Positions 15,701 through 62,515 of a DNA stretch of 64,000 bases are shown here, piece by piece; positions within the stretch are counted from its first letter, which is position 1, and each line of letters opens with the position of its first letter. Position numbers and translations under genes: made by a program. The notes beneath the pieces were generated by a model that searched no databases, had not been told where the DNA came from, and worked only from the letters and a program-made list of their open reading frames with translations. The stretch comes from Agapetus fuscipes (lineage: Eukaryota; Arthropoda; Insecta; Trichoptera; Glossosomatidae): NCBI GenBank assembly GCA_951799405.1, contig OX637344.1, positions 6,634,001 to 6,698,000 of the forward strand. Reading direction: 5' to 3'.

Positions 15701-18456
15701 ACATTCTATCTTCAAATAGATGTAAAATCTACTGACGCTTGTTGAGACAGGCCCAGGGCTGTGATGATGATCTTTGCAACTTAGATTATAGAGATAGATG
15801 ATATTTGATTGCAGGTTAGTGAAGTGCAGTGCCATGGTGGCGCTGGGGGCTTCCGTGTCCCGCAATGACCTTCCCGCCTCCGCCCGCGACAAGTGCTGGC
15901 TCACCCTGGAAGGGCTGGCGAGGGAGGAGAGGGCAGGAGAGGGGCAGGGAGAGGGAGGTGGACTGGGGCACAGGGGCGCCGCCTGCCTGGCGCACACACT
16001 CGCCTTGCTAATGCAGCACGGGGCGCAGCATAACAAAGGTTTAAAATGCATACAAGTGTTATGTCAGCTTATTTTTATTTATTGAAATTTGTGAAGATGA
16101 ATGAAATGAAGAACTTTCAAACAAAATGGTTGTTTACGTAATTATAATTAACTCTCTCTTAACCTAAAACAAATCTCTGCTAAAAAAAGTTCATTATCAA
16201 TCGTTGTGCAGAAAGGGGGCCTCCTGAAGCCTTGACTACGTCGTCAGCGAAACTCTCAAAGATTTGTGAAGGAGAATACAATTCGCCAACCTATTTTGCC
16301 TGGCCAGGAACAGGTATTAATATCATCACTTTATAATTCATTAATTTATATTTTAATGAATTATTAATTATGCAATGATATCTGTTGAACCAGGCTAAAA
16401 GTTATGGTCAAGAGGCCAGGCAGGAATCAAACCAAGGTTTTTCTTTTTATAATATGCTAGGCAAGATTAGCATCCCCTCGGCCGTAACACTGGCATTATT
16501 GATGGATGGTGCATACAGAATTCATTCTCTACTCTCATTGCATCAGTCACTATTTTCATTTTCTAGTTCTCCCCAATCTGACGATGCTCTGTTACTCTCC
16601 CATATTCTCGTCCACGAATGTGTCGGCCATCAATGAACTCCTGAAGGAATTACTCCCGGCTCTGCAGCTGGGAACTCAGGGAGACTGCTCGGAGCATTTC
16701 ATTCAAAATGTGCTGCTCCCCGCTTTGAGGTAAGCTCTTCACAATTTGCCATACTTTCTCTCTCTTCAATTGTACTTTTGTCCAGATAGAGCCTTTGTGT
16801 ACTTAGTCCTTGGTCCGGTGATAGCCAGTTGGTAGAATGCTTCCATTCCATGCTGAGAGTTACGGCCATCACACACTAAATGCACTCTGCCATCATTCTG
16901 GCACTTTTGTCTGTGTTTTTTTCTATCCGGCGCCGGATCTGATTTTAGTAGTACATGGAGACGTATGAAAGCTTGCACACAGTCCTGTGATCCTGTAATC
17001 CATAGACAATCCGGGCAGAATGGGAACCCTAGGGTTTTATTCCCACCAAGGGTGTCAGATACGATTTCTTGTTACGATCATTATTTCAAACTCAAAATAA
17101 AATACCAACAAGATTTAATCAGCCTTCAAAAGAAACAAGGACCAGTCCCGCAGGAGCTGGGTAACCTTCACTTCAATTTAAGTGGTTGGCGCAAAGCTGG
17201 CCCCCTTACATGTAATAATTAATAGATTCCACATAGCACATGCGACTCCTTCGAGAGAGAGAATGTGGTAAGAAGTTGCCTTATATCTGTAGATTAGTTG
17301 TGTTGCATGTTCAGTAGCATATGAGGAGTTGCTTTAGGAAACTGACTTCAGGAGCTTAGAAACTAGGAGCAACGGGACCCTTATATGCTCTGTCATAAGG
17401 TCATCAACGGGTTAAAAAGACAGTCCCACCCTGTTGGAAGGTTTCAGGTTGAGTGTTAAACTCATTAACAAATCAAAGATTGACATATTTCAATATAATT
17501 TAGACACCTTTAAATCCATGGTGATAGAGTTCCTCCCAGCTTGTTGATGGCTGAGAGGGGGGCACTGTAATTGGGGTAACCTATTGTGCACCATGAAAAA
17601 GAGATATATATATATATAAAGGGATCTTATTTGATTTGGTTGGTGATTATTTAATTTTTTTTCTCAAAATCAAACTTCCTCGTGTTGCTCTGAAACCAAA
17701 GTTTTTATTTGTTTAAAATACCACTTTACATAAAATAAACTAAAAACAAATAAGCTCTTACAAATCAATTATAAACAAAATTACCTGAAACCAAAGAAAC
17801 TACAATTAAGTTAATTTTGTTACTATTTTATAAATAAATGAAATTAAAAATTTAACTCTGATAACAATTTTAACACTCCAAAAACAAAACATCATGGCCG
17901 TCCTTCAACATGGCCGACGTCCACCCAATCACACGAGAATACAGCTTGCTCCAATCAACGCCCTGCGCGACAAATTAAAAAATGTATCATAATATTCATA
18001 ATATCTTTACATATATATATAAATATGTTGCATACTCCTATCCTTAGTAGCGGCCTTCCGATTTGCCACCAGGAGAAGCTATGTTGTATCTCTTCTCATT
18101 TCAGCCTTTTCATCAAAACCTTAAAAAACCCAGCTAAGTGAGATCACACTTCTTCCCCAGTTCTTTTTTGTCGAGTCTATTAACATATATTGTTTCCTAG
18201 GAATCTGGAGCATTTGGATAGTCTGGTCAAATCAGAATACAAGTCGGCCATCGAAGCGTTGATACACAAAGTCACGACCAGCTCATCCAACAAAGAGAAC
18301 CACGGAGTTTCTAGCGCATCGAGCACCACCTCCTCTCCCATGTCCTCCCTGCCAGGCCTGCTCACGAGCCCCGAGTCTGTGGGCAGGAGAGTCACACAGA
18401 TGTTCCACTCAAAGCCAGCCATGAACCTCCAAAATATATTCAAGAAGAAGACGTAA
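769..18456 (+). CDS. RELCH: RELCH homologue (LisH, coiled-coil and HEAT-repeat protein, KIAA1468 family)
   Basis: Seventeen coding exons: 769-994, 1718-1873, 4555-4718, 5517-5729, 6128-6444, 6905-7159, 7242-7392, 8052-8214, 9003-9154, 10118-10358, 11274-11640, 12309-12599, 13282-13400, 14831-14972, 15815-16038, 16567-16729 and 18201-18456. All phases join without a stop, giving 1199 residues, close to the roughly 1200 of the vertebrate protein. A LisH motif lies at about residues 18-50 (TYSDVAAKLLQDN) and a second at about 150-180 (RALNFLVNEYL). Coiled coils lie at about 103-127 (VLEFELRKARE) and 254-288. The conserved WDDVGLNIP segment follows, then HEAT-like helices from about residue 440, including IVPNVLLVKRDE and VVHTSEQVR. 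In vertebrates the family binds Rab11 and OSBP on recycling endosomes and promotes cholesterol transfer to the trans-Golgi; that role is known for the family and inferred here. The GTG at 730 in the same frame was rejected in favour of the ATG at 769. Exon 9 has a competing in-frame acceptor at 8931. The exon 15 donor (GTTTAA) is weak. The stop codon overlaps a donor-like GTAAGT. Confidence 0.95.
1385..1580 (+). repeat. fragments of dispersed repeats in RELCH intron 1
   Basis: Positions 1385-1465 resemble the 3' tail of family A (ATCTGTGCAACTTAAATTATAGATT). Positions 1475-1580 resemble a second dispersed repeat seen again near 26862, 51369 and, inverted, 21970. Both are short and decayed. A run of G residues lies at about 1111-1124. 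Confidence 0.45.
2497..2595 (+). repeat. family A retrotransposon tail fragment
   Basis: The stretch carries the family A 3' end order: tttgtaagc, aacttacatgtgtc, atatgaatttgaaatg, atatctttgcaactt, then an ATAGATTATT tail. Only the last ~95 bases of the family are present. Confidence 0.55.
2751..3832. mobile_element. hAT-like non-autonomous DNA element with perfect 8-bp target duplication
   Basis: The left end TAGGGACTGGAAAA is mirrored by TTTTCCAGTCCCTA at the right end. Flanking both ends is the perfect 8-bp direct repeat CTCATAAC (2743-2750 and 3833-3840), the target duplication size of hAT transposons. The subterminal regions hold many copies of the word ACGCGAA or its partners (CGCGAATTTCCC). 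No transposase remains. A SINE sits inside it at about 2984-3245. Confidence 0.85.
2984..3245 (+). mobile_element. tRNA-headed SINE (SINE3), nested inside the hAT-like element
   Basis: The head contains a tRNA-like box B (GGTTCGATCCC, about 3040-3050) preceded by GCCGAGGGGCAAG. The tail reads CCTGTTTCTGGCCAGGCAGA and TTGGTGAATTGCATTCC, then CACAAATCTAT. The same head and tail, inverted, recur at 16258-16492. Tails alone recur near 38160 and, inverted, near 57405. Three independent recurrences support a dispersed family. Confidence 0.7.
4207..4385 (-). pseudogene. decayed L2/CR1-like reverse transcriptase fragment
   Basis: The minus strand encodes a stretch resembling [20 protein letters not shown] of the better copy at 47820-48887: QFNCFQTVLNSAARLISGIS, then a short hydrophobic run. 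The frame is lost soon after. It abuts the + strand relic ending near 4206, so two unrelated fragments meet here. Confidence 0.55.
5933..6045 (-). repeat. family A tail fragment, inverted
   Basis: On the + strand the order is TATAATCTAAGCTGCAAAGA, CATTTAAGGCTCATATTAAA, TGCATGCCCACAGACAAGC, the reverse complement of the family A tail. About 110 bases remain, in RELCH intron 4. Confidence 0.6.
6668..6866 (+). repeat. SINE1 body fragment next to a family A fragment
   Basis: Positions 6668-6735 match the SINE1 body (GGGTGTCAGAAATGATTTCCC). Positions 6771-6866 match the start of the family A 3' conserved block (ACTTATAGGTTGGTATGAGA, then AATGGTTCACTTTGCCAATG) and stop abruptly before RELCH exon 6. 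Confidence 0.6.
7645..7970 (+). mobile_element. tRNA-headed SINE (SINE2)
   Basis: The element begins with a tRNA-like head: box A-like TAGTCCAGTGG and box B GATTCGAATCC, then CCGGCGGAGCAC. The body is GCTCTTCGCTGGGTTGAAAA, AGACCGGTCATC, GCTACTGGGTCTTGCTTGAG and GAGGGCTCTTGAGGTGTGAT, and the tail ends in a T run. Inverted copies lie at 60087-60377 and 60378-60532, and a body fragment lies near 22045-22130. It is in RELCH intron 7. Confidence 0.75.
8303..8448 (+). repeat. CTGAAGA/GAAAC fold-back repeat, decayed copy
   Basis: The copy shows the order CACAGTTTCATCA, CTGAAGA, GCCCA, CATGGGT, CAAATGTCCGGAAGCTCCAG and TAGACCACGGCAACAGATCT. The box that reads GAAAC elsewhere is CAAAT here, so a hammerhead-like core would be broken. 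Better copies are at 23106-23305 and 56325-56515. Confidence 0.65.
8553..8862 (-). mobile_element. tRNA-headed SINE (SINE1), near full length, inverted
   Basis: Read on the minus strand it starts with a tRNA-like head (CTCAGTTGGTAGAGTGCTTG; box B-like region GGTTTGAATTT, two bases off consensus). The body follows (GGTGTCAGAAATGAG, AAACCTTGCCGG inverted, CGGGAGCTGGGAAA) and it ends at AACTTCTTGCCGCG seen on the + strand. It lies in RELCH intron 8, about 70 bases before a competing splice acceptor for exon 9. Confidence 0.75.
9213..9725 (-). pseudogene. L2/CR1-like reverse transcriptase C-terminus, decayed copy
   Basis: The minus strand is a degenerate copy of the C-terminal third and 3' UTR of the element at 47757-48890. 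Shared words on the + strand include CACACTCACCTCAACGGGGG, AAACATGTCTGCCAGATATG and GAATTTGGACATCCCGAA. Frameshifts and stops interrupt every frame. It is in RELCH intron 9. Confidence 0.7.
9840..10085 (+). pseudogene. non-LTR C-terminal fragment, ACAGTT-tailed family (family B)
   Basis: The + strand reads KGKGRPRKV, then an in-frame stop (TGA), [11 protein letters not shown] and [10 protein letters not shown], matching the end of the better copy at 46690-47199. The fragment ends with CCACACCTAGTGGTATGGCA and the family tail ACAGTTACAGTT. It lies directly before RELCH exon 10. Confidence 0.65.
10782..10999 (-). repeat. family A 3' end, inverted
   Basis: On the + strand: AATCTATCTATAATATAAGT, ACATTTAAGATTCATATTAA, CCCACAAGCAGACATG, CCCTGAAACAGGG, GTGAACCATTTTTTTACAGT and GGGTGGTCAGCCTCATAC. 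This is the whole conserved 3' block, in RELCH intron 10. A further 55-base direct-orientation start of the block lies at 11150-11205. Confidence 0.7.
11836..12030 (-). mobile_element. SINE1, 3' half, inverted
   Basis: The + strand reads CAACTAAGCTACACATACAG, CTTGCCTGCGTTATCCCTGA, GTCGCATGTGGCGA, AACCACTTCAGTTGAAGTAG and AAACCTTGCCAGT, the inverted SINE1 3' half. The tRNA head is missing. Confidence 0.65.
12961..13105 (+). repeat. CTGAAGA/GAAAC fold-back repeat, copy with altered stem
   Basis: The boxes read CTAAAGA and GAGAC, both one base off. The stem between them is ACCCAT/ATGGGT instead of GCCCAT/ATGGGC in the 23-kb copy, so both strands changed together. It is followed by GTCCGGAAGCTCCAGCTCCC and AGACCATGGCAACAGATCCC. 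It lies in RELCH intron 12. Confidence 0.65.
13715..13790 (+). repeat. tRNA-like SINE head fused to an antisense RTE fragment
   Basis: The sequence GATAGCTTAGTTGATAGAAT gives a box A-like motif and AGGGTTCGATCCCCG gives box B, spaced as in a tRNA. No SINE1 body follows. Instead the sequence runs straight into the antisense 3' coding end of the RTE-like fragment at 13755-14682. Confidence 0.5.
13755..14682 (-). pseudogene. RTE/BovB-like reverse transcriptase, 5'-truncated and interrupted
   Basis: The minus strand encodes the palm and thumb of a non-LTR reverse transcriptase. VRQGDPISPKLF lies near the start, then the catalytic LRFADDIIVIS, GLKMNLTKTKLM, YIYLGHKIQ and a C-terminal RDRLRNEDIRVRTKV. 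The VRQGD.ISPKLF form is typical of the RTE/BovB clade. An in-frame TGA at about 13930 replaces a Trp codon of the usual KWRWAGHVAR segment, after which the same frame continues through GRPQLRWCDDV to about 13755. The endonuclease and fingers are absent. It is inserted antisense in RELCH intron 13. Confidence 0.8.
14660..14770 (+). repeat. SINE1 body fragment
   Basis: Shared words are AGGCTTAGTCAGCCTTCACA, AGAAATGAGAAACTCC and AAGTGGTTGGCGTAAG. It abuts the 5' end of the antisense RTE fragment and precedes RELCH exon 14. Confidence 0.55.
15030..15345. repeat. retrotransposon C-terminal scrap (+) and family A fragment (-)
   Basis: Positions 15040-15175 (+) encode GADNVEANAEVLGVRGPWRE and AQDRVLEDCG. 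A minus-strand relative lies at 20110-20245 (EVLGVRGPWRKAVQDRV). Positions 15230-15345 are a rearranged inverted piece of family A (CATTTAAGGCT, CATGAACATAAACCTTGCAA). Both are in RELCH intron 14. Confidence 0.5.
16258..16492 (-). mobile_element. SINE3, inverted copy
   Basis: On the + strand the tail appears first (AGATTTGTGAAGGAGAATAC, CGCCAACCTATTTTGCCTGG, GAACAGGTATTAATATCATC) and the tRNA-like head last (GGCCAGGCAGGAATCAAACC, CCCTCGGCCGTAAC). It matches the element nested at 2984-3245 and ends just before RELCH exon 16. Confidence 0.65.
16807..17297 (+). mobile_element. SINE1 copy split by about 150 bases
   Basis: The tRNA-like head is at about 16814-16862 (GATAGCCAGTTGGTAGAATG, CTTCCATTCCATGC). 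The SINE1 body resumes at about 17047 (AAGGGTGTCAGATACG, AAGTGGTTGGCGCAAAG, AGAAGTTGCC) and ends near 17297. The intervening stretch is not otherwise recognised. It is in RELCH intron 16. Confidence 0.6.
17590..18200. other. rest of RELCH intron 16, no gene seen
   Basis: AT-rich sequence with a short (TA)n run at about 17607-17618 and (ATAT)n near 18010. No repeat family or coding segment was identified. Confidence 0.4.
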
Positions 18457-22386: not shown

Positions 22387-25300
22387 TTACAACTTGCTGC
22401 TTGTGGTCAGCATGTCCCTGACAATGCTGACGGCATGTTTAGCTGTGCCGGGGGCGCAGGTGACGCCGTAGCCTCCGTGGCCGTAGCAGTGCACCATCTT
22501 GGTCCTCTTGTAGGGGAACTGCACCAGCTCGCCCTCCACACGCACGGGGGAGCGGTGGGGGCGCAAACCAACAGCATGGCGAATCACTTCTGCTGTGCGG
22601 AGGGCTAAAAGTGATGAAATAATATAAAATATGAACTTCATTTATTTAAAATTAAAACAGATTAGATGAGGTTCCCACATTCAAAATATTTCTCGGCTAT
22701 GTGACGTGAGAGACCAGCGCCTCTGCCCGTCAGATTTTAAACTAACCCAGAGGACATAATGATTCCCGGTTATCTAAATGTTAAGACCATCAAAGTTATA
22801 AGGATTTTTATGGTTTGTGTATTAACACTGTGAAAATTGATGTTTTTTGATTGTTATTTAATTAAACACTTTTTAAATTTTAAAACACTGTTTTATTTCC
22901 ACAAATAAGTATATAATATATTTAAAAATTATTAACTTTTAAATATTTTAAATAGTACCTACTAACGTTTTCGACCAATATAGTCATCTTCAGGTCAATA
23001 TATTTGTGGAAATAAAACAGTGTTTTAAAATTTAAAAAGTGTTGTTTAATTAAATAACAATCAAAAAAAAAAGTTATAAGTGTTCGTGGATTGACGTTGT
23101 GAAGATTATGCTGGAGAGATGTTTTCCAGGATCTGTTGCCGTGGTCTATGGAAGCTGGGAGCTTCACAGTTTTCATCAAGATCATCTTCATCATCACACT
23201 TCACGCTGAAGAAGCCCATCGTAGACATGGGCGAAACGTTCGGAAGCTCCAGCTCCCATAGACCACAGCAACAGATCCCAGAAAACATCTCTCCATCATC
23301 ATCAGCCGTCCGTGTAAGCCTAAAACTCTTATTGTGAAGATTATTTGGTATTTATTTCATGGCTGGTGGCTGCCACTTAAAGAGCTGTTTTCCAGGATCT
23401 GCTGCATGGAGCCGGAGCTCCTAAATTATTTCTATTCTGTATTATTTTGCAAATTAGAAATTTGGTTTACTTTGATATTATACATTGTAGATTAAATTGA
23501 ATTGAATGAAGTAAATTTTATGTTACTATAATTTGTAAGTGGTACATTGGTTATGTGGAAAAAAACAATATTATGGATGAATGTGACATTTTGATTTTTT
23601 TGTAAACACGTGATACAATTGTGTTTGATTGTGATAAGATACGAAGATAAATGTGATAAGATACAGGTATAATATGGTTACCAGGTATCAGCTCGGCACA
23701 TCTGTCCATGATTCCGGCTGCGTCATATTTGCAGACATCTAGGTTGAAGCTGTCGTACTGTCGTGTACCTCCAAGGGTCACTCCTTCAAATCCTGGCAGA
23801 ATGTACGCATCATAGTCCCCGTAAAATGCCATCTTTAACCAAGGCGCCTTTACCTGATGGAAAAAAATACAACATATTTTTTAAAGCTGTTTAACCGCCC
23901 TACGTATACTAACCTGTTTAATATGTACATCCGCATTGTTTTCTCCTGGACGCAACTAGCCCAAACCGTGTTCTGTATGTTCTGGTACAGAAAAAATACA
24001 CAAAGCGGTAAGCAAATGCAAAGATCACTGCATTGATTTGATAACCAGCCTTGAGAACGCTTTCTACTTGTGAAAGCAAAACATTGGCAGATAGAAAAGC
24101 TGGGAAAATAACATGGTCTAACCAAAAAAAAAAAAAATGCATTTCAGATAGGTCTGAATCGAATCCATTGTGTACTTAGTTAATTACAGTTCAATTATTT
24201 GTATATTTTAAGGTTTCGCCACTGCTCTATATTTGTATACATTTTTGTATGTTAAAAAGTGTTCTCTGAAACATTGAAAAGATAATTGTTGTTCTCTTTA
24301 GCTTGCCTTGATAATTTGTCCTCTCATCGGTACAAGCTTGACATCATTGCAGAGCTCTCTAGCTCCCAGACCTGTACAGTTCACGATGACATCATAGTCC
24401 TTGGTAATGTCAGAGAAGCTTTCTATCTGCTGCTTCCTCACAACACCACCATTGTTAAAAAACCTGAAAATAAAAACCATTACTCTCCAATAACGCTGAA
24501 GAAGCCCGAGCCGGATACAGGCGAAACTTACGAAGATCCAGCTACAATGGACCACAGCAACAGATACCAGAAACAACCAGCATATAGTGACATCACTAAA
24601 AGTGCTTTTTTAACGGTTTTAGAAATCAGCCTTGTGCCAACTTATATTTCAAGGAACTGATTATATATTTATGATGATGATGATTTTTATAGCGCCGTTT
24701 CGTGACTACTGTCACTGCAAGGGCGCTTTCAGGCTTGACGCAGCGGTGAAAAATTTACTCACATAATCAGGCTCAGGATTCTTGGTTTCATTACTTGTGA
24801 CACAATGTTAGGCTCTTGACATACAGACCTACGGATGCATTATCGGTCACCCTCAGGTACAGGTCCGAGAATTCGACAAAGCATTTTGTTCTCAAAGACC
24901 TGGATAGATTTATCTTGCTTGTGAGTCAGACTCCAACCCCCAAATTACATCCATACAACACAACTGACCAAATAATGGATATATTGTATATATATTGAAT
25001 TTCATAAGACCGGCTTTGAACACAATAGACCTAAGGTCTTCAACCCGCGGCCCTCGGGCCGCATGTGGCCCGCCAGCTAATTTCTTGCGGCCCGCGGCCA
25101 CGAGAGGCTAAAAAAATAAAATATCGCGCCCAGTGATATGCGATATATACGGATACGAGTACTTTTTTTTCGGAGTTCTCGGTGTTTTTTGTGTCATTTT
25201 GATTATTTTCATGGCACTACTCACAGGGGGGACCACAGGAAGGTTCGGCACATTCCCCCCCAGTAGATTTACTCAAAAAAGAGTTTCAATCGAGGTTTTC

Positions 25301-28300
25301 TGACTTCAGAGATAGTGAAAAATACATCAGTCTCTTTGTCCGACCATTCGGTGTATCCGTTGAAGACATGCCGGAAAATTTTCAGATGGAGGTTATAGAT
25401 GTGCAGTGTAATTCGGAATTGAAAGACAAGTTCGACGTGGGTGTTTTTGATTTCTATGCAAAATATGTCGATCACAACTCGTTTCCTGAAATCCGAAAAA
25501 ATGTCATGAAAATGATTTCATTGTTTGGGAGCACATATGTGTGTGAGCAGCTGTTTTCTCGTATGAAGTCTGTGAAATCGACAACAAGGTCGAGAATTAC
25601 AGATGCACATCTGGAAGGTAGTCTGCGGGTTGCAACCACAAAAATGAAAAAAAATATTGACAAACTTGTAAAAAATAAACAATGTCAAAAATCACATTAA
25701 TTGACTTTAATTAACCAATAAAGATTGACTTTAATTAACCAATAAAGATTATTGAAATTTGAAATTACGAGTATGTATGTCTTTTATTTTATTGATTAGG
25801 TGGTTAAGTGTCGTGAAAAGTTGTGGCCCTTCGGACGATGTGAAATCGATGTTTGGCCCTTGCACTAAAAAAGGTTGAAGACCCCTGCAATAGACAATAG
25901 TCTTTTGAGGCCAAAAAGCATTGATCCAAAGAAAAATTATTCTAAATCTAAATCTAAGCTGCAAGGATATGTATCATTTGAGATTCATATTAAATGCATT
26001 CCCACAAGCAGACACGCATAATTTCGCGCTCACACATCCCGCATGTGGACCTACAATATAAAAACCCAATTCTCAAATGGACATAAGCCCTGCAACTCTT
26101 GCCGACCTTCCCTGAAACAGGGGTGACATTGGCAAAGTGAACCATTTTTTACAGTATGGGTGGTCAGCCTCATTTATTTATTTATGTTACTTAATTGTAT
26201 ATGATGTATATTACATTCATCAATAGTCTTTTTAAGTTTTTGTTCTTTTTTTAACTTAATTTTTTTTTTGTTTTTGTGCACAACAGGTTACCCTAATTAC
26301 AGTGCACCCTCACAGCTATCAACATGCTGGGAGGATGTTATTTATTATTTGTATTCCTTGACTTATAGGTTGGTATGAGGCTAACCACCCGTACTGTAAA
26401 AAATGGTTCACTTTGCCAATGTCACCCCTGTATCAGGGAAGGTCGATAAAAGTTGTAGGGCTTATGTTCATTTGAGGTTTGGATTTTATTTGTAAGTACA
26501 CATTCAGCAGTTTTAAGCGCGAACTACACGTGCTTGTCTGTGGGCATGCATTTGAGAGCTTTATAAATGAATATATCCTTGCAATTTAGATTAAAGATTA
26601 TTATAGATTATAGAATAGTGGTGCAATAAAGACTTATTTACTTCTTCTTAGCCCAGGGCAGGTAGAGTCGGCTCTCGATAAGCATAGTGGTGAAGAAGGA
26701 GCCGTACTTCCAGTCATTGCCACACAACTTGAGCTCCTCTTCTGTAGCCGTGCGGTAGATGGGGACAATGTCTTCAATCAAATGATTCTACAACAGACAT
26801 AAACACAATTTAAGATGGATTCATGACCATATAAAACAAACTGCCCTGCAAAATCCAAGGCTAGTGGTGTAATGAAGCCACTTGTTCGCAGCACCTCACG
26901 ACAAGCAACAATTCAAGCAACACCTCTGCGGCACGTTTCCAGGGTGACATAGACCCCTAGACTTAAAATAATTGGGGAGCCTCCAACACAGGATTTGTTA
27001 AAAAAAAATGCTGTTTTCTCTCAATATAAAACATTGGTTGGCTCGATAAGTTGTGAATACGGGAATACCTATGTCTTTTTGCATTTGCATCAAGAATGAC
27101 CATTGTTTTTTAATAAGCGATGTCAGGGTCCGTCCTACATTCGGAATACAGATACAGACAGTTTAATGCCCTGGAAACAATATAAATTTTTAACACAATA
27201 AAGGCAACATTGTAAATGTGCAAAACTCTGCAGGTTCACCCTTATTCAAACTCTTCTCCCGTCATATCTCTGAACCCCAAGACTTTCTCCAGAACACACT
27301 GTATTGTAGTTTTTAATTTCTGTATTATTATGTTAAATTTTCTAGCTATTTTTTCTTAAACATTGTCAAAAGTGCTTTAGATAGTAAAAATTCAGTGAAG
27401 AAAAATCTGTACTTTTTATTTTATTTTATTAATTTGTTGATTCAACTACTTAGATTATCCATTATATAGTAATCATGTTCAGACAAGTATTATTGGTATT
27501 GTTTTACCCGCACAACGCTGGGATTTCTCTTGGAGAAGATGTACCCGGAGAGCAGAGTGACTCCTGCATTTGAGGCTTCGGAAGTCTTCAGTAAGTCACT
27601 CCAATGGGACCAGGAATCATTTACCCACAATCTGAAGAATTAGATTTAAATTGCAAAATTATACATGCATGTGGGTAGGTATTTATTTAACAATAATTAA
27701 TCTATTTATTTTAGAGAAATGGTAGATACAGTCACAATGCAATGTATTGCTGCAGAAAGAATGAATGCTAATCGAATATAATATAAAGTTATCCTCCCAC
27801 AACTTTTCCCAACTCTCTCAATCCCGCCCTTTAGTCAACTCACACTGGCACACTTGCAGAAATTTGTCACAAAGAAGATCATTTTGTTTATAAATTGTTA
27901 AGTTTATACTTAACCATAGTGTTCATCATACAATGTATTGAAAATAAGACATTAATGAGTGATTTACTTTCCATACACTTTTAGAAAAACGCTTCGGTTG
28001 AGTTTCAATGTAAGTAATTTAATTTTAAATTTAATCATTTTTTGAAAAGTTTTAGCGGAAACATTGTAGAACTCCATTTTAATTATTAAAAAATGATAAC
28101 AAACTTTGTTTAGTTCTACTTTATTTATTTTTATTTAGTTACAAACAAAAATAACGAGTTGTGACCGGTTTCGGCCTCTTGGCCATCCTCAGATTCTCAG
28201 ATGGCCATTTCAGTTTCTCTGAGGATGGCCAAGAGGCCGAAACCGGTCACAACTCGTTATTTTTGTTTGTAACTAAATAAAAATAAATAAAGTAGAACTA

Positions 28301-28842
28301 AACAAAGTTTGTTATCATTTTTTAATAATTAAATTTAATCTTTGAAAAAGTAAATTTTTTTTTTTTTATTTGTAGAAGTGACAAATAAAAATCAGATAAA
28401 AAATGTTTATTGTGAGCATAAAACATTACATAAACTCCCCTCGATCACGGAAATAGAATAAAAAATAATGAAAACTAAATCACTCACTAGGGATGCTGTT
28501 GTATCTTCCATACATACATATATTTATGCAATGGACTCACACAGCTGTATGATAACACAATTTTGTATGTCCCAATTCACGTGTGGACCTCATTGAGGGG
28601 AGTTTATGTAATACTTTCTACTCGGGGAATTTGTTACATTACTTGGTTGTTTTATCATCAGGGGCGCAGAAGCTGGTTCCTGGTCTGAACACGCCCGCAG
28701 CCACCGAACTTGTCGTTTCAGTTTCAAACTTGTCAGCTAAGACTGTCACCCTGGATCCTCGCAGCTCATCGTGCAGCAGCAGGGCCGTGGTGAGACCCAC
28801 CACACCTGCACCGACAATCCCAATCCTCGGACCATCCCCCAT
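22387..28842 (-). CDS. D-aspartate / D-amino-acid oxidase, peroxisomal flavoenzyme
   Basis: Six exons in gene order: 28842-28643, 27631-27508, 26787-26642, 24463-24307, 23853-23682 and 22604-22387, joining in phase to 338 residues, the usual size of the family. The enzyme oxidatively deaminates D-amino acids to 2-oxo acids, ammonia and hydrogen peroxide using FAD. An N-terminal dinucleotide-binding motif GIVGAGVVGL lies at residues 8-17. VNCTGLGAREL and VPMRGQIIK are family hallmarks. VTLGGTRQ and the C-terminal YGHGGYGVT signature follow, and GLRPHRSPVRVE carries the arginine expected to bind the substrate carboxylate. The last three residues are SKL, a canonical PTS1 peroxisomal signal. TLGGTRQ leans towards the D-aspartate oxidase branch, but DAO versus DDO cannot be settled from sequence alone. 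Intron 4 has a GC donor (AAG|GCAAGC). The introns carry many repeats, including three fold-back elements and a hAT copy. Confidence 0.93.
22843..23070. repeat. inverted-repeat element with hammerhead-like core (type C)
   Basis: Arms at 22843-22907 and 23001-23070 are reverse complements apart from a 3-base indel. The 93-base loop holds, on the minus strand, CTGAAGA (22993-22987), a short GAC/GTC stem and GAAAA (22972-22968). It lies in the last oxidase intron. Penelope-like elements carry comparable motifs; assignment to that group is inference. Confidence 0.7.
23106..23305 (+). repeat. fold-back repeat with hammerhead-like core (type A, best copy)
   Basis: An imperfect inverted repeat (GATCTGTTGCCGTGGTCTAT near 23130 against ATAGACCACAGCAACAGATC near 23270) brackets CTGAAGA (23206-23212), one extra A, a 6-bp stem GCCCAT/ATGGGC with a 7-base loop, and GAAAC (23233-23237). 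Related copies are at 8303, 12961, 24481 and 56325. A partial copy follows at 23370-23430 (TGTTTTCCAGGATCTGCTGC). Confidence 0.7.
24481..24585 (+). repeat. fold-back type A repeat, truncated copy
   Basis: CTGAAGA, GCCC...GGC and GAAAC are in the family order, followed by ATGGACCACAGCAACAGATA. The left arm is missing and the stem is reduced to about three pairs. The copy starts just upstream of oxidase exon 4 on the minus strand. Confidence 0.6.
25031..25887 (+). mobile_element. hAT transposon remnant with perfect 8-bp target duplication
   Basis: The ends are CTAAGGTCTTCAACC (left) and, inverted, CAGGGGTCTTCAACC (right). Both are flanked by CAATAGAC (25023-25030 and 25888-25895), an exact 8-bp duplication as made by hAT transposases. 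Inside is only the C-terminal part of a transposase, so it is an internally deleted copy. It lies in intron 3 of the oxidase gene, opposite to that gene's strand. Confidence 0.93.
25248..25700 (+). pseudogene. hAT transposase C-terminal (hATC dimerisation) fragment
   Basis: The frame is open from about 25248, with an ATG at 25368, to the stop at 25698-25700. It shows VEDMPENFQMEVIDVQC, FPEIRKNVMKMISLFGST and YVCEQLFSRMKSVKSTTRSR, the hATC dimerisation region of transposases of the GTF2IRD2/ZBED/Charlie-like kind. The catalytic RNase H-like core, the zinc finger and a plausible start are absent, so it cannot make an active transposase. Confidence 0.85.
25937..26176 (-). repeat. family A 3' end, inverted
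   Basis: On the + strand: AATCTAAATCTAAGCTGCAA, CATTCCCACAAGCAGACACG, ATAAGCCCTGCAACTCTTGC, CTTCCCTGAAACAGGGGTGA and CAGTATGGGTGGTCAGCCTC. This well-preserved copy lies 50 bases from the hAT remnant and forms an inverted pair with the copy at 26358-26612. Confidence 0.8.
26358..26612 (+). repeat. family A 3' end, direct
   Basis: CCTTGACTTATAGGTTGGTA, AAAAAATGGTTCACTTTGCC, TTATGTTCATTTGAGGTTTG, TGCTTGTCTGTGGGCATGCA and a TAGATTATAG tail at 26595-26612. It sits just downstream (on the + strand) of the inverted copy at 25937 and immediately before oxidase exon 3. Confidence 0.8.
26862..27012 (+). repeat. dispersed repeat, unclassified (copy 1)
   Basis: CAGCACCTCACGACAAGCAA, CACCTCTGCGGCACGTTTCC, AGGGTGACATAGACCCCTAG and AATTGGGGAGCCTCC recur with substitutions at 51369-51500, and inverted fragments lie near 21970. 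It ends in an A run, consistent with a retroposed sequence. Confidence 0.6.
28078..28333. repeat. perfect 115-bp inverted repeat with hammerhead-like cores (type B)
   Basis: Arms 28078-28192 and 28219-28333 appear to be exact reverse complements around a 26-base loop. At the loop edge the + strand reads CTGAGGA (28219-28225), T, a GGCC-AAGA-GGCC hairpin and GAAAC (28239-28243). By symmetry the minus strand carries the same motif in the other arm. It lies in oxidase intron 1. The exact match of the arms suggests a recent origin or ongoing gene conversion. Confidence 0.85.
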
Positions 28843-31800
28843 CTTTAATTCCTAATCAATATTTTTAACAAGCTTCCATAAAAAAATATATACTCGTATA
28901 ACTGTATCCAGCCGTCATTCTACCAGTACCCTGAATATACAAAATTGTGTAAAGTCACCCTGGTTGTGTAAAATGAAAACTCTATCGCTCTCTAGGAGTG
29001 CCTTTGTATATTTCATTTAAGTATTTTCAATTTATGCAATCCAGATGAGATTACAAAATATTGGACTAAGCTTTGGGTACAGGAGCTCATATTAATTTTA
29101 GGAAATATTTCAGGAAAAAGCAGCAGGAGTTACAAGATTTAATTGATAAATTTTAAAATATCTTTACAACTTATATTATAATATTGTATTGTTATAGTGG
29201 CCAGTACCTCCGCTTTGTTTTGTCCTTCTTTCTTCTCCTTTACATTCATCACGCCCTTCTATTTTTTCAATCATCTGATTCCAGTTGTTAACAATCTTAT
29301 TTATTTGATCAATTTGCTTTCTTTTCACATTTCCTCTGTACCTATGTACATACACTTTGTCAGCCATTCATCATACATTCTTTCTACAAGTCCAATCACA
29401 TTATTTTGCTCCTCCACTTTCAGCTTCCATTTATTTTTTACCCATTCACTTTTATTTTTACACTTTTCCTAAAGCTTTTTCTCCTCACTTCCCAAATGTT
29501 CAATTTCCACTGTTCTTACCTTGCTCACTTCACAGTCCAAGTTCATACAAAACTGACTAAAAAATCAAGAAACTACACAGTACTACTACTACACAGTATT
29601 TATAATTTAGAAAACAGGTTTGTCTGCATTGTATTTGTGTCCTGCTGTTTACAAATATATTACTGGCTAAAAACACAATGATATTTGACAGGAAATGTTG
29701 GCAACAGTACAATTGATTTTAATTTATTATGTAACTGAGAAAAGCAATTAATTCTGGGATGAGCTCACCTTTTAAATGGTCAAATTTTTGCTGCTTACTG
29801 TCCAAAATATTTTCCTCAAGTGAGAAGACTCTTTTTATCAAATGAGATAAAATGTCAAACTGCTCAGCTGATAAATATATTTATATGTATACCTACACAT
29901 ACCTCTTCTTATGTGGGCTTATTCAAGTAGTATGTACATATCCTGATGATACTCCTTTAAGATTATAATATATTTTTATGAGTCCTGACTTGGGATCACA
30001 AATAACAGAAAAAATGTAAGCAATTATTTATGATCACCAATACAATACACCACAATAATGTCTCTTCATACACAATCCAGAATAAATGTTATAATACCGG
30101 TGATACTTACTTTCTTGCCGACCCGAAGGTCCAAAAATAGTCTTGTTTTAGTATATTTTCAGATTTCAGGGTTTTTTTATTTATTTATTTGATGATTTTC
30201 TTTCATTTAATTTTCCAAGAATAAAATGTAACATTTAACTCAACCAGTTTCACCAAAATACTATGTGAACTAAAGCAGTACATCTAGTGAGTGTTTTGGT
30301 TTCCATACATTTTTGGTAAAATGATGCGTTTATACTTACAGTATGTAATAATAAAATAGTTTTTTGAAAAGTACTTGAAGTATAAAGCATTGAGTAAACT
30401 CACCTCCATCGTGTAAATTAAAAAAAATGCATGGAAACTAAGTCGCTTATTCCATACATTTTTTAATTCACACATTCGAGGTGAGATTAACGCATTGTTT
30501 TATACCCGGGGTACAGGAATCATTTTATAAGTGAATTGATTTGTGATTGGAATAAAAACCATGTGTATAATTACCATAATTTAATTTATTTGTTGTAAAC
30601 TCGCAATATTGGGTATAATTTATTATTTAAATACAAATTTGTCAAGTTGCTGTTGGTGAATCCTAAGTATATTATATAAGTTCACTGTGGGCGGCTCGTC
30701 TCACCTCGGGGAGGAAACAGCGGCCGCTCAGTGCTACATGTAATATCACTTCATGTACAAAAGGCAGTCTCAGAGAGAGGGTTACCACATAAATACTGAA
30801 ACACTGGATGTGGAACTAAATGCTTACGTTATACGGAACTTCCATTGAGTTATAATATTAAAGGAGACAAAACTGAACTATTCAAACATCCTATCAGTGT
30901 TATTCTTCCTTGTCACTTTCCCCGTCCGCTTATATAGCGACTATTTAGCCTGGGTGTAAGGCCGGACCAAATGAAATAGGAAGTTTCGATTCCGGTGAAA
31001 GGTCTAGGAATAGATAAGCTTACAATTATTATTGTATGGCTGAAATTACATCTGTTCAATGTTGTATGTTTTTGACAATTTTGCTTTAGAGATGTCACTA
31101 CCTAAAAAATATTTTAAAAAATAGGGAATTTCCATTACTAAATAAATGAATAAATGAACTATTAAGAAAATAAACAAGAAATATTATAAAAAATAAAACC
31201 GAATAATCAAATAAAAGATATGTAATGCGATTCATAATAAAAACAATTTTAAAAACAACTGATTAGCCAATTAATCCCTATATTTTTAGTGGATTGGGGA
31301 AAATAAAACCATGTGGGGAAATTTGCACTATAGATGGCCGCAGTTCAGAAGTTTTTCCATGTAAACAAATCAGATCTCGTGGAAGCGTCAGAAAGCGTGG
31401 GATCAATGGAAAACCAAAATGTCTAAGAATAACACTGTATGAGACTAACCTGTGAGCCGGACCTGTCAAACACCTCATAATACCTGATAATCATATGAAA
31501 TCCTATGTTTTCTTGCTTACTCTATATTGTGTTTCGACACCCAATATGCCATTGTGTTTTATAAATTATTTTTTCTTTAAAAACTGATAAATTCCCCAAT
31601 CAAAGCAATGGAAATGTGTTCGCACAATTTCTGCGCAGAGAAGACATTTTTGTGATGCTGACAATGCAGAAAAAACCCTACATCTGGTTACACTTGCCTG
31701 TTTAACTGCAGTCACACTCAGAGCATCTTTGTTCTCTTTCTACGGAAGATGTGTGTTGAGGTAGGTTGGAACGGATATAGTGACAACTTGCTTTAAAATA

Positions 31801-50365: not shown

Positions 50366-50783
50366 AATCTTCAGATAAAAAATACAACTTGAAATTTTGA
50401 TGAACGAGAAATTTAATATTGTCAATGCATTGGAAATTTAATTTATTGCACAAGAATTTTGAAGGCGTTCAAAATGACTAGAAATTTGTTTTTGAAATTA
50501 GGGCTTTTCTTTTATTTTCACATTCGGAATATTTTTCTAACCAATGTTTCCAGAAAGAAAAAATCTATAATGGGGAAAAAATTAAAATGCTTGTTCTACT
50601 CTCCGTTAGATGGCAGTTATACAAATGTTTGTAGGTATTTTTTAAAGGTATAAAATTAGGAGTTACTTATCAATAAAATCTCAAAAGTCATCTTTGTGAC
50701 TTGGGTCTTAAGCAACTAATAACAAAATATTCAATAAAGTTTTAAACTTTCACTAAAACTTTCATGATTGGTATTATATAATA

Positions 50784-50885
50784 AATTGTTTTTCGGGTAA
50801 GACCATGGTCTACATGTAGCTTTTTTATTTTTAGGAGTATAAAAAAGCTGATGGTAGACCATGGTCTAACCCGTAAAACAATACA
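50784..50885. repeat. short fold-back (inverted repeat)
   Basis: The left arm GACCATGGTCTACATGTAGC with its TTTTTTAT extension is mirrored on the right by AAAAAAGCTGATGGTAGACC and ATGGTCTAACCCGTAAAAC. Arms are about 40 bases with a roughly 12-base loop and a few mismatches. GACCATGGTC is itself palindromic, so each arm can also pair with itself. Confidence 0.7.
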
Positions 50886-51368
50886 TTAAACAAATTTTTC
50901 ATTTGATTTTCCTTAGTCACTCGGCCGTGTGACGTCCCAATTTTGTTGTCTATGAAATTTGTGACGAGTCCATTCGAAATAAGATTTTTTTCTCAGCAAG
51001 CAAAACTTTCAGGTCTAAGTTACTCCCTAACTCGACACTCATTTGAACAAAAAATCTTATAAAATGTACCTACATATTTGTGACTACGGTCCTCAGCAAC
51101 CAATAACAATATATTGTTTTGCCTTAACCCTCAAAACTTGGCTTGTTCTAATGAGCTCCATTCATTAATCCCTCCCCCTCGCATTTCAGAAAGGGAAACT
51201 CGTGGTATGACTCTCATTCATCCCTTTGCAGTCAATCTAAAAACTATGGAACTTGGCATTTTCATGACTCATTCCTTTGCCAAACTGTCCGTTAATGGAA
51301 TGACCTACCAATACTTGTGTTCCCCTCCCAATTTAATCCGATTTTATTAAAAACAAACATCAATCACC

Positions 51369-56324: not shown

Positions 56325-56515
56325 GTTACTTTTCAGGATCTGTTGGCATTGTCTATCGGAGTTAGATTCTAATTTTCATAAGAGTTTCACCAAAATCTCT
56401 TCACATTATCATCATGCTGAAGATGCCCAACACAGATATGGGTGAAACGTCCGGGAGCTACAGCTCAAATACAGAACAAAAACAGATCCCAGAAAACAAT
56501 TCTCCAGTGTCAATC
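56325..56515 (+). repeat. fold-back type A repeat with hammerhead-like core
   Basis: TTTCAGGATCTGTTGGCATT and, inverted, AACAGATCCCAGAAAAC bracket CTGAAGA, T, a GCCCA/TGGGT stem with one G-T pair, and GAAAC, then GTCCGGGAGCTACAGC. Both boxes are intact. Confidence 0.68.
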
Positions 56516-61145: not shown

Positions 61146-61249
61146 TCAAGTTTGTGGATTTAGGGATTCCGACCAAGAACGATGGTTAAACATTCAATGC
61201 GTAAAATATCCTAAAACCTGCTGACCATGGCACCTAATTTTTGTCCCTA

Positions 61250-62515
61250 ACTATCTATATCTATAAAGAAGGATGTATGTATGTATGTATGTATGTATGT
61301 ATGTATGTATGTATGTATGTATGTATGTATGTATGTCCCCTATAGACTCATAAACCGCTCATCCGATTTTGACGAAATTTTCAGGAAACATGTAACATAT
61401 TCTTAGAACGAATCCTGTGAAGTTTGATGGTGATCAAATAAACAGTGGTTCTCAATTCTCGATATTTCAGCAACGAGGTCGGTAAATTTCGAAACCACCC
61501 AATAGAAGACAACCATTATATTCAACTACAATACATAATCTTTGTTGCAAATATACATTTACATTAAAGATTCATATAAAATGCATGCTCACAAGTAGAC
61601 ACATGTAAGTTCACGCTTACAAATGCTGCATGTGTACCCACTCATAATTTAAAATCCAAATCTAAAATGAACAACCCAGTAACTTTTACTTTACGCCAAC
61701 TTGAAATGGATGTTATTCAGCTCCTGAGTGGATTGACACTCATTTCTTATGAAGGCTGAGTAAGACTTGCCGGTATTTTATTTTGGGTTTAAAATAAACA
61801 CTGAAACGGGAAATAATTTCTGACAACTTCGGTGGGATTCTAACTCGAGATCTCGGCATGGAATGCAATCTATCTATCTATATCTATAAAGAAGGATGTG
61901 TGTATGTATGTATGTATGTATGTATGTATGTATGTATGTATGTATGTATGTATGTATGTCCCCTATAGACTCATAAACCGCTCATCCGATTTTGACGAAA
62001 TTGTCAGGAAACATGTAACATATTTTTAGAATGAATCCTGTGAAGTTTGATGGTGATCAAATGAACAATGGTTCTCAATTCTCAATATTTCAGCAACGAG
62101 GTTGGTAAATTTTGAAACCACCCAATAGAAGAAGACCATTATATTCAACTACAATACATAATCTTAGTTGCAAATATACATTTACATTAAAGATTCATAT
62201 AAAATGCATGCTCACAAGTAGACACATGTAAGTTCACGCTTACAAATGCTGCATGTGTACCTACTCATAATTTAAAATCCAAATCTAAAATGAACAACCC
62301 AGTAACTTTTACTTTACGCCAACTTGAAATGGATGTTATTCAGCTCCTGAGTGGCTTGACACTCATTTCTTATGAAGGCTGAGTAAGCCTTGCCGGTATT
62401 TTATTTTGGGTTAGAAATAAACACTGAAACGAGAAATAATTTCTGACAACTTCAGTGGGATTCTAACTCGAGATCTCGGCATGGAATGCAGTTACTCTAC
62501 CAACTAAGCTATAGA
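61250..62515. repeat. 623-bp composite tandem duplication
   Basis: Two units share the order CTATAAAGAAGGATGT, a (TATG)n tract, CCCCTATAGACTCATAAACC, CGATTTTGACGAAATT, an inverted family A fragment (about 61528-61705 and 62150-62325) and an inverted SINE1 with its head at the end. AAAGAAGG recurs at 61265 and 61888, a 623-base period. Unit 1 stops inside the SINE1 head at CATGGAATGCAA; unit 2 continues through ACTCTACCAACTAAGC. Confidence 0.85.
61272..61335 (+). repeat. (TATG)n microsatellite
   Basis: About 15 uninterrupted TATG units. The partner tract in the second duplication unit lies at about 61902-61959. Confidence 0.9.

What the first reader, a model, noticed from the sequence alone, without database searches (positions are those of the whole stretch)
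28078..28333. Perfect 115-bp palindrome carrying hammerhead-like cores on both strands
Seen: the two arms mirror exactly around a 26-base loop. At the loop edge lies CTGAGGA, one T, a GGCC-AAGA-GGCC hairpin, then GAAAC (28219-28243); the other arm carries the same motif on the minus strand. CTGANGA, stem II and GAAAC in this order is the conserved part of hammerhead ribozymes, known from Penelope-like elements and retrozymes. Every instance in this window has one extra base after CTGANGA, so it may be a variant or a conserved but inactive hairpin. Exact arms imply a young or gene-converted structure, inside an oxidase intron.
Basis: partly seen in the sequence, partly recalled or inferred. Interest (0 to 1): 0.75.

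Follow-up and report, generated by a model that had tools for sequence, protein, structure and literature searches.

The report
Head-to-head palindrome of hammerhead-bearing retroelement
In an insect gene's intron, two mirror-image copies of what looks like the tail of a mobile element sit head to head, each with the core of a self-cutting RNA; the odd extra base in that core also occurs in a working ribozyme of this kind, but here the mirror copies would pair with each other and probably keep it switched off.

Summary
The palindrome is real: arms 28078-28193 and 28218-28333, 116/116 complementary, 24-nt loop. Each arm's inner edge reads CTGAGGA-T-GGCC-AAGA-GGCC-GAA-ACCGGT-C outward.
The extra T is no proof of inactivity. 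The Anolis Poseidon Penelope-like ribozyme (PMC11167929; active only with the element's protein) has the same extra U, then a palindromic ACGU and C. In a capped viral scan, 95 of 116 distinct sites with one extra A/T form a three-stem hammerhead. Rfam silence means little: at gathering it hit 0 of 16 canonical three-stem cores.
Best reading: a head-to-head, fold-back insertion of the last ~140 nt of a Penelope-type element. In this copy the arms pair (-185 kcal/mol, -133 with the core enforced) and stem I is poor, so self-cleavage in cis is unlikely. The window's own assembly could not be searched, so the element family and the Penelope link are inferred. New member of a known kind.

The parts
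28078..28193 (-). left arm of the palindrome: inverted copy, read on the minus strand as core followed by tail
   Evidence: 116/116 complementary to 28218-28333
28218..28333 (+). right arm: core followed by A+T-rich tail, outer end ATTAAA
28194..28217 (.). 24-nt loop at the inverted junction; contains the 8-base palindrome ATGGCCAT (28201-28208); right half aligns to left half across it (94.2% over 138 columns)
28219..28248 (+). hammerhead-type core: CTGAGGA (C3-A9), extra T (position 10), stem II GGCC/GGCC with AAGA loop, GAA, palindromic ACCGGT (stem III), C (position 17, predicted cleavage after it)
   Evidence: hammerhead numbering is recalled
28163..28192 (-). same core on the other strand
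28078..28083 (+). possible target-site duplication TTTAAT, left copy (ambiguous: also part of the perfect arm)
   Evidence: sequence
28334..28339 (+). possible target-site duplication TTTAAT, right copy
   Evidence: sequence
22824..23084 (-). second inverted-repeat element with a core of the same type starting at 22993 (CTGAAGA-T-GACTATATTGGTC-GAA-AACGTT-A); arms nearly identical over about 60 bp apart from a 3-base gap
23104..23303 (+). third inverted-repeat element with core at 23206 (CTGAAGA-A-GCCCAT..ATGGGC-GAA-ACGT-T); repeat family D7, other copies near 8319, 12973, 56386
56417..56451 (+). core of another D7 copy, CTGAAGA-T-GCCCA..TGGGT-GAA-ACGT-C; reads MPNTDMGETSG beside the Anolis Poseidon ORF start MPAIDVGETSG
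28642..28851 (-). first coding exon (FAD-binding start) of the DAO-type oxidase gene in whose following intron the palindrome lies
   Evidence: Pfam DAO 7.5e-10

Best explanation
The palindrome is an insertion made by a reverse transcriptase of the Penelope type. An RNA carrying a minimal type I hammerhead core (with an extra U at position 10) followed by a ~110-nt A+T-rich tail was copied into an A+T-rich intron site. Either the 3' end of the first cDNA folded back on the ATGGCCAT junction and primed copying of itself, or both cut target strands primed copies from the same internal RNA site. Both routes give two identical copies, head to head, with ribozyme cores at the inner edges and tails outside. 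In its source element the core would be a small hammerhead that pairs its palindromic ACCGGU with a second copy and cleaves after C17. In this locus the copies pair with each other, so a transcript forms a long double-stranded hairpin and is probably not self-cleaving. Shown here: the repeat, the core anatomy, its orientation, and that an extra A/T at this place is compatible with three-stem hammerheads. Inferred: membership in Penelope-like elements, the mechanism of insertion, and activity or inactivity.
For: Core anatomy: in the stem-filtered window scan 5 of 8 hits have a self-complementary A..U stretch directly after GAA followed by a non-G base; they come from three elements without similarity to each other beyond the core; the other three hits, with long spacers, lack it. 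In 134 viral and prokaryotic sites with the same extra-base core only 5 have such a palindrome and 3 also a non-G base. Extra base: the printed Poseidon (PAc) RNA (PMC11167929, passage) reads cugaggA-U-Gcc...ggc-gaa-acgu-c; C3 and G8 mutants are reported dead, the double mutant partly restored, and the ribozyme needs added protein but not its endonuclease activity. A review (PMC3705267, passage) reports that in a chrysanthemum viroid ribozyme the extra A10 slows trans-cleavage moderately, A10 to U speeds it 3-4 fold, C or G are very detrimental. Viral sites: 99 of 122 extra-base sites form three stems against a flank-swapped control mean of 6.55 (maximum 12 in 20 runs); 95 of 116 after removing duplicates. 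Orientation and junction: head-to-head inverted copies with palindromes at the junction are described for Penelope elements (PMC3846280, passages); the PAc enzyme cuts and extends both strands with no difference in start site, prefers A+T-rich ATT sites and starts 111-118 nt into the ORF; here the arm ends 109 nt after A9, in TTTAAT. One copy of each of the three core-bearing elements lies in a short-range inverted repeat. The D7 copy at 56386 aligns to the PAc core with score 37, above all 300 shuffles (maximum 31).
Against: No Penelope reverse transcriptase or GIY-YIG gene was tied to the arm; of ten window ORFs scanned three are RVT_1, none GIY-YIG, and the arm's AUG frame stops after 15 codons (read). 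Against PAc the palindrome's arms score 27 and 25 (shuffle maxima 28 and 35), the 22969 element 27 (35), and three of four D7 copies 18, 21 and 28 (30, 26, 31): none above shuffles. No second core-bearing copy of this arm is in the window; self-BLAST gave only weak A+T-rich similarity of the tail, best at 17779-17842 (69%, E 4e-4, filter off), with no core upstream; the own genome could not be searched. Stem I is poor: by inspection 5 of 8 positions pair on the plus strand, not contiguous. The PAc ribozyme itself shows no cleavage without protein and is not needed for insertion in vitro. The target duplication is short and ambiguous; a longer imperfect flank similarity was matched by 0.5% of 2000 shuffles. 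The 8-base junction palindrome could be chance (about 7% for a 24-base loop, my estimate). PMC3846280 infers an antisense template for head-to-head copies, not the cDNA fold-back that I prefer. The extra-base statistics come from viral contigs, not insects.
Confidence: 0.6

Rival explanations
1. A palindromic MITE or foldback DNA element: 116-bp terminal inverted repeats with a tiny centre, moved by a transposase; the hammerhead-like core is an inherited or chance passenger.
For: Symmetric 256-bp unit, A+T-rich ends TTTAATTATTAAA, possible short flanking duplication TTTAAT; a hAT dimerisation piece just under the Pfam cut-off lies at 25203-25697.
Against: Three inverted repeats in the window that share only the ribozyme-type core; the orientation is that of head-to-head retroelement copies; two D7 copies look 5'-truncated (by eye).
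Confidence: 0.18
2. Replication-fork template switching turned an imperfect inverted repeat around the core into a perfect one (quasi-palindrome correction), with no retroelement event at this step.
For: Arms are perfect while the 24-nt centre is imperfectly palindromic; the neighbouring core-bearing inverted repeats have imperfect arms.
Against: Needs a pre-existing arm; in the neighbours the core lies outside the arms, here inside.
Confidence: 0.13
3. Assembly or library artefact (foldback chimera).
For: Perfect arms with a short loop are typical of foldback chimeras (recalled).
Against: The two flanks differ and DAO-type exons continue in order on both sides; a simple foldback read would mirror the flank too. 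Reads were not available.
Confidence: 0.05
4. A chance or non-ribozyme hairpin: GGCCGAAACCGGTC and CTGAGGATGG fold into other hairpins, and no ribozyme ancestry exists.
For: Free folding of loop plus right arm prefers other hairpins (-32.8 against -20.9 kcal/mol with the core enforced); no Rfam hammerhead hit.
Against: All core bases plus a palindromic stem III and a non-G base, three times independently in 64 kb; Rfam misses canonical three-stem cores too.
Confidence: 0.1

Closest known systems
Minimal type I hammerhead of Penelope-like elements, especially Poseidon of Anolis (PAc, PMC11167929, passages)
   Same: CUGAGGA then an extra U, stem II, GAA, palindromic stem III, C17; the extra U is part of an AUG; 109 nt here, 111-118 nt there, to the end of the copy or the reverse transcription start
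   Different: PAc has a 3-bp stem I next to the core (by inspection) and an ORF reading on; here the frame stops after 15 codons, stem I is poor, stem II differs, and no Penelope protein has been tied to it
Head-to-head inverted pLTRs of Penelope elements in Adineta vaga (PMC3846280, passages)
   Same: inverted copies head to head, palindrome at the junction, target duplications of 8-10 bp or none
   Different: there they accompany an ORF or captured DNA; here only 24 nt lie between perfect 116-bp arms
Non-LTR retrozymes of animals (PMC7229834, passages)
   Same: small, A+T-rich, type I hammerhead, self-paired RNA
   Different: retrozymes are tandem repeats, in invertebrates with a more stable helix III; here single cores in inverted repeats
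Chrysanthemum chlorotic mottle viroid plus-strand hammerhead (PMC3705267, passage)
   Same: one extra base between A9 and G10.1; ribozymes of both polarities
   Different: extra A not U; an infectious circular RNA

Membership tests
Hammerhead ribozyme, type I minimal | C3-A9 CUGANGA, stem II, G12 A13 A14 | tested here: met
   exact at 28219-28242 and mirror, with one extra T between A9 and stem II
Hammerhead ribozyme, type I minimal | A15.1-U16.1 and stem III, here palindromic and loop-less for dimer use, then H17 | tested here: met
   ACCGGT then C; pairing in a dimer is inferred
Hammerhead ribozyme, type I minimal | stem I joining the two ends | tested here: inconclusive
   constrained fold of 28194-28333 forms no stem I next to the core; 5 of 8 positions pair by inspection
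Hammerhead ribozyme, type I minimal | self-cleavage after H17 | not testable with these tools
   needs a transcription assay
Rfam hammerhead families | match at E up to 1 (window) or up to 10 (locus) | tested here: not met
   none; the test is insensitive: 0 of 28 three-stem cores reached gathering scores
Penelope-like element | RT plus GIY-YIG ORF linked to the repeat | not tested
   own assembly unreachable; ten selected window ORFs showed RVT_1 on three, no GIY-YIG
Penelope-like element | head-to-head inverted copies with junction palindrome | tested here: met
   against the description in PMC3846280; not unique to this family
Penelope-like element | end of copy at the internal RT start about 111-118 nt into the ORF | tested here: inconclusive
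   109 nt from A9 to arm end; one copy only
Animal retrozyme | tandem direct repeats carrying the ribozyme | tested here: not met
   self-BLAST of 28194-28333 finds no second direct copy with a core in the window
MITE / foldback DNA transposon | family of copies with constant termini and fixed duplications | not tested
   own genome could not be searched

The most novel reading that the evidence does not exclude
Hammerheads with exactly one extra U (or A) at position 10 are a broad natural subclass, shared by phages (where cleavage is almost always after C17) and by animal Penelope-type elements, and not reached by current covariance models at their standard thresholds. The window's insect elements belong to it, and its inverted copies seed long perfect RNA hairpins in gene introns.
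Probability: 0.4. Interest if true: 0.6.

Novelty: new member of a known kind. Interest (0 to 1): 0.42.

Why it matters
It shows that Rfam thresholds overlook such cores. It also gives a clean, probably young example of a head-to-head insertion of a ribozyme-bearing sequence, useful for deciding between fold-back priming and two-strand priming in Penelope-type retrotransposition.

Tried and rejected
Rfam as a judge: no hammerhead at E up to 1 in the window or up to 10 at the locus. Hits at the locus are all below their cut-offs, mostly microRNA precursor models, as expected of a long hairpin; also RAGATH-7 on the minus strand (25.3 bits, cut-off 111.8) and a few small-RNA models. Rejected as evidence after controls. 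The one Hammerhead_II match (L131, 456-522) is not at the tested core of that locus.

Relatives elsewhere: the exact motif is absent from genome contigs and close forms from viral contigs; blastn to phages gave 8 records with E 0.1 or worse on the A+T-rich tail. Of the 10 genome-contig hits of a looser pattern 1 forms three stems. An extra G at position 10 was not tested.

Literature: text searches for the motif letters (30 of 43 papers listed, 6 papers) were seen as listings; two passages were opened, a Daphnia Pokey primer and a flatworm small RNA (noted below). Searches for the extra base and for ribozymes in foldback elements listed no paper on a class with an extra U at position 10, as far as titles and the passages read show. 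Cervera 2014, Lunse 2017 and de la Pena and Flores 2001 are not held: known from citations and recall only.

D7 against PAc: the 'core masked' scores printed are an artefact (N matched N) and are not used.

Changed on checking: confidence of the best explanation 0.62 to 0.60, because the Poseidon ribozyme needs protein; MITE rival 0.17 to 0.18.
Full report
Observation. Arms 28078-28193 and 28218-28333 are exact reverse complements over 116 bases with 24 bases between them, slightly different from the 115 and 26 stated. The match stops abruptly outside. Among perfect arms with loops up to 60 bases the next longest is 14, and three shuffles gave 14, 10 and 12. The loop is itself imperfectly palindromic around ATGGCCAT (28201-28208); the right half aligns to the left half through it at 94.2% over 138 columns.

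Place. The palindrome lies in the intron after the first exon of a minus-strand gene with Pfam DAO matches on 28642-28851 (7.5e-10), 24301-24414 (0.0015, below cut-off) and 22390-22575 (7.2e-05, below cut-off); a further exon candidate 23704-23859 had no match. The window is from an insect: for its CDT1 gene the best hit is an unnamed protein at 62% identity, and the best named one is from Arctopsyche grandis (54%), followed by many lepidopterans, among the 120 of 251 hits listed. That Arctopsyche is a caddisfly is recalled.

Core anatomy. On each strand the arm's inner edge reads CTGAGGA, T, GGCC-AAGA-GGCC, GAA, ACCGGT, C. In hammerhead numbering (recalled) this is C3 to A9, one extra base at position 10, stem II, G12 to A14, a self-complementary stem III from A15.1 to U16.1, and C17. 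A scan of the window for CTGANGA, a stem of at least 4 pairs and GAA gave 8 hits. Five have an even palindrome starting with A right after GAA and then a non-G base: 28219 plus and 28192 minus (C), 56417 plus (C), 23206 plus (T) and 22993 minus (A). These are three elements without mutual similarity beyond the core in self-BLAST; 23206 and 56417 are copies of repeat family D7, whose two other copies have damaged cores. Three hits (45795, 58627, 19918) have long spacers and no palindrome. In 134 sites with the same extra-base core from viral and prokaryotic contigs 5 have such a palindrome and 3 also a non-G base after it; for canonical cores 6 and 3 of 136. The two scans are not identical: the viral pattern fixes GAAAC and three G-C pairs.

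Is the extra base allowed? An extra G was not tested. Requiring a stem I of at least 4 pairs, a stem III and a non-G cleavage base, 99 of 122 extra-base sites form three stems, against a mean of 6.55 and a maximum of 12 in 20 control runs with flanks from random places of the same locus; canonical 128 of 134, control mean 6.95. Without duplicates the figures are 95 of 116 and 127 of 133. The extra base is T in 103 of 116 and A in 13; 87 and 8 of these form three stems. C17 is used in 94 of 95 extra-base ribozymes; against canonical ones this differs within type III (71 of 72 against 23 of 32, Fisher p = 8e-5) and weakly within type I (23 of 23 against 80 of 95, p = 0.04). Relatedness of the viruses makes these p-values too small. 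Against a strict rule: 3 of 6 extra-C and 3 of 5 two-base sites also form three stems (two of the latter share the same flank), so these forms exist but are rare; and only three of the window's five cores have C17.

Published support. PMC11167929 (passages) prints an RNA template of the Penelope-like element Poseidon of Anolis: its ribozyme core has the same extra U, being the U of the start codon, then a stem II, GAA, ACGU and C. The paper reports that single C3 and G8 changes abolish its cleavage and the double change partly restores it; that there is no cleavage without added protein, while endonuclease mutants of the protein still allow it, hence a protein-assisted ribozyme; that cleavage is not needed for insertion in vitro; that the enzyme cuts and extends both target strands with no difference in start site, prefers A+T-rich ATT sites, and starts 111-118 nt into the ORF. 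PMC3705267 (passage) summarises viroid work in which an extra A10 slows and a U10 speeds trans-cleavage. PMC7761336 and PMC6155905 (passages) describe minimal type I hammerheads without helix III in Penelope-like elements, possibly working as dimers. PMC3846280 (passages) describes inverted pLTRs, mostly head to head, with palindromes at the junction, and reads these as self-priming on an antisense template.

Why Rfam was silent. At gathering thresholds Rfam hit none of 12 extra-base cores in 11 loci and none of 16 canonical cores in 12 loci; all 28 pass the three-stem test. Its one Hammerhead_II match, in L131, is elsewhere in that locus. L024 scored nothing even at E up to 1. The negative result in the window is therefore uninformative, and the blindness is not special to the extra base.

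Mechanism. Both arms run from the core outward to a shared outer end, so the copies are head to head. From A9 to the outer end is 109 nt, near the published internal start site. Two routes fit. In fold-back priming the 3' end of the cDNA anneals on the junction palindrome and copies itself; this predicts an imperfect centre and perfect arms, as seen. In two-strand priming both cut target strands copy the same RNA; then the loop is simply the longer copy's extra 5' part. I prefer the first slightly because of ATGGCCAT, which could still be chance. Either way the arms are identical at birth, so exactness suggests recency but not gene conversion. TTTAAT occurs at 28078-28083 and 28334-28339 and may be the target duplication, though the left copy is also inside the arm; a longer imperfect flank similarity was reached by 0.5% of 2000 shuffles.

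Activity here. The whole hairpin folds at -185.2 kcal/mol; with the plus-strand core enforced it is -133.3. For the right half alone the figures are -32.8 and -20.9, and no stem I forms beside the core. For the other elements enforcing the core costs less: 23175, -108.0 to -102.2, with a 2-bp stem I beside the core continued by the long arms; 56386, -55.8 to -46.4, and 22969, -93.8 to -90.6, both without stem I beside the core. So this copy is probably silent in cis; 23175 is the best candidate of the four, subject to assay.

Penelope link. The D7 copy at 56386 aligns with the Poseidon core above all 300 shuffles (37 against at most 31) and reads MPNTDMGETSG beside MPAIDVGETSG; much of that peptide is the ribozyme itself in translation. 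The other three D7 copies, the 22969 element and both arms of the palindrome are not above shuffles. Self-BLAST of the right half finds no second core-bearing copy in the window, only weak A+T-rich tail similarity, best at 17779-17842. No GIY-YIG domain was found in the ten ORFs scanned. The link is plausible for D7 and only by analogy for the palindrome.

Verdict. A real, striking structure with a largely known explanation: new member of a known kind, with a side result on extra-base hammerheads that deserves its own study.

Noticed in passing
L001-L120 (viral contigs): Three-stem hammerheads with one extra T or A at position 10 are common in viral contigs, mostly type III and cleaving after C17; 12 of 12 tested cores were missed by Rfam at gathering.
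   Followed up: partly
L121-L240 (viral contigs): Rfam at gathering also missed 16 of 16 tested canonical three-stem hammerhead cores.
   Followed up: partly
window 22824-23084: Another inverted-repeat element with a ribozyme-type core just inside one near-perfect arm.
   Followed up: partly
window 8319, 12973, 23175, 56386: D7 repeat family: core plus a reading frame like the Poseidon start; two copies have a 5' arm complementary to their own 3' part, two look 5'-truncated.
   Followed up: partly
window 50774-50893: 55-bp imperfect hairpin with GACCATGGTC, resembling a small MITE or miRNA-like hairpin.
   Followed up: no
L018:4894-4973 (minus): Twister-sister ribozyme about 600 bases from an extra-base hammerhead in a viral contig (75.6 bits).
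   Followed up: no
PMC7878377, table passage: A Fasciola small RNA, fhe-miR-11585, reads GACCGGTTTCG..., the complement of the core's CGAAACCGGTC; possibly an inverted ribozyme copy processed as a miRNA.
   Followed up: no
window 61247-62169: Two 300-bp blocks 96% identical, 623 bases apart, with an ATGT microsatellite.
   Followed up: no
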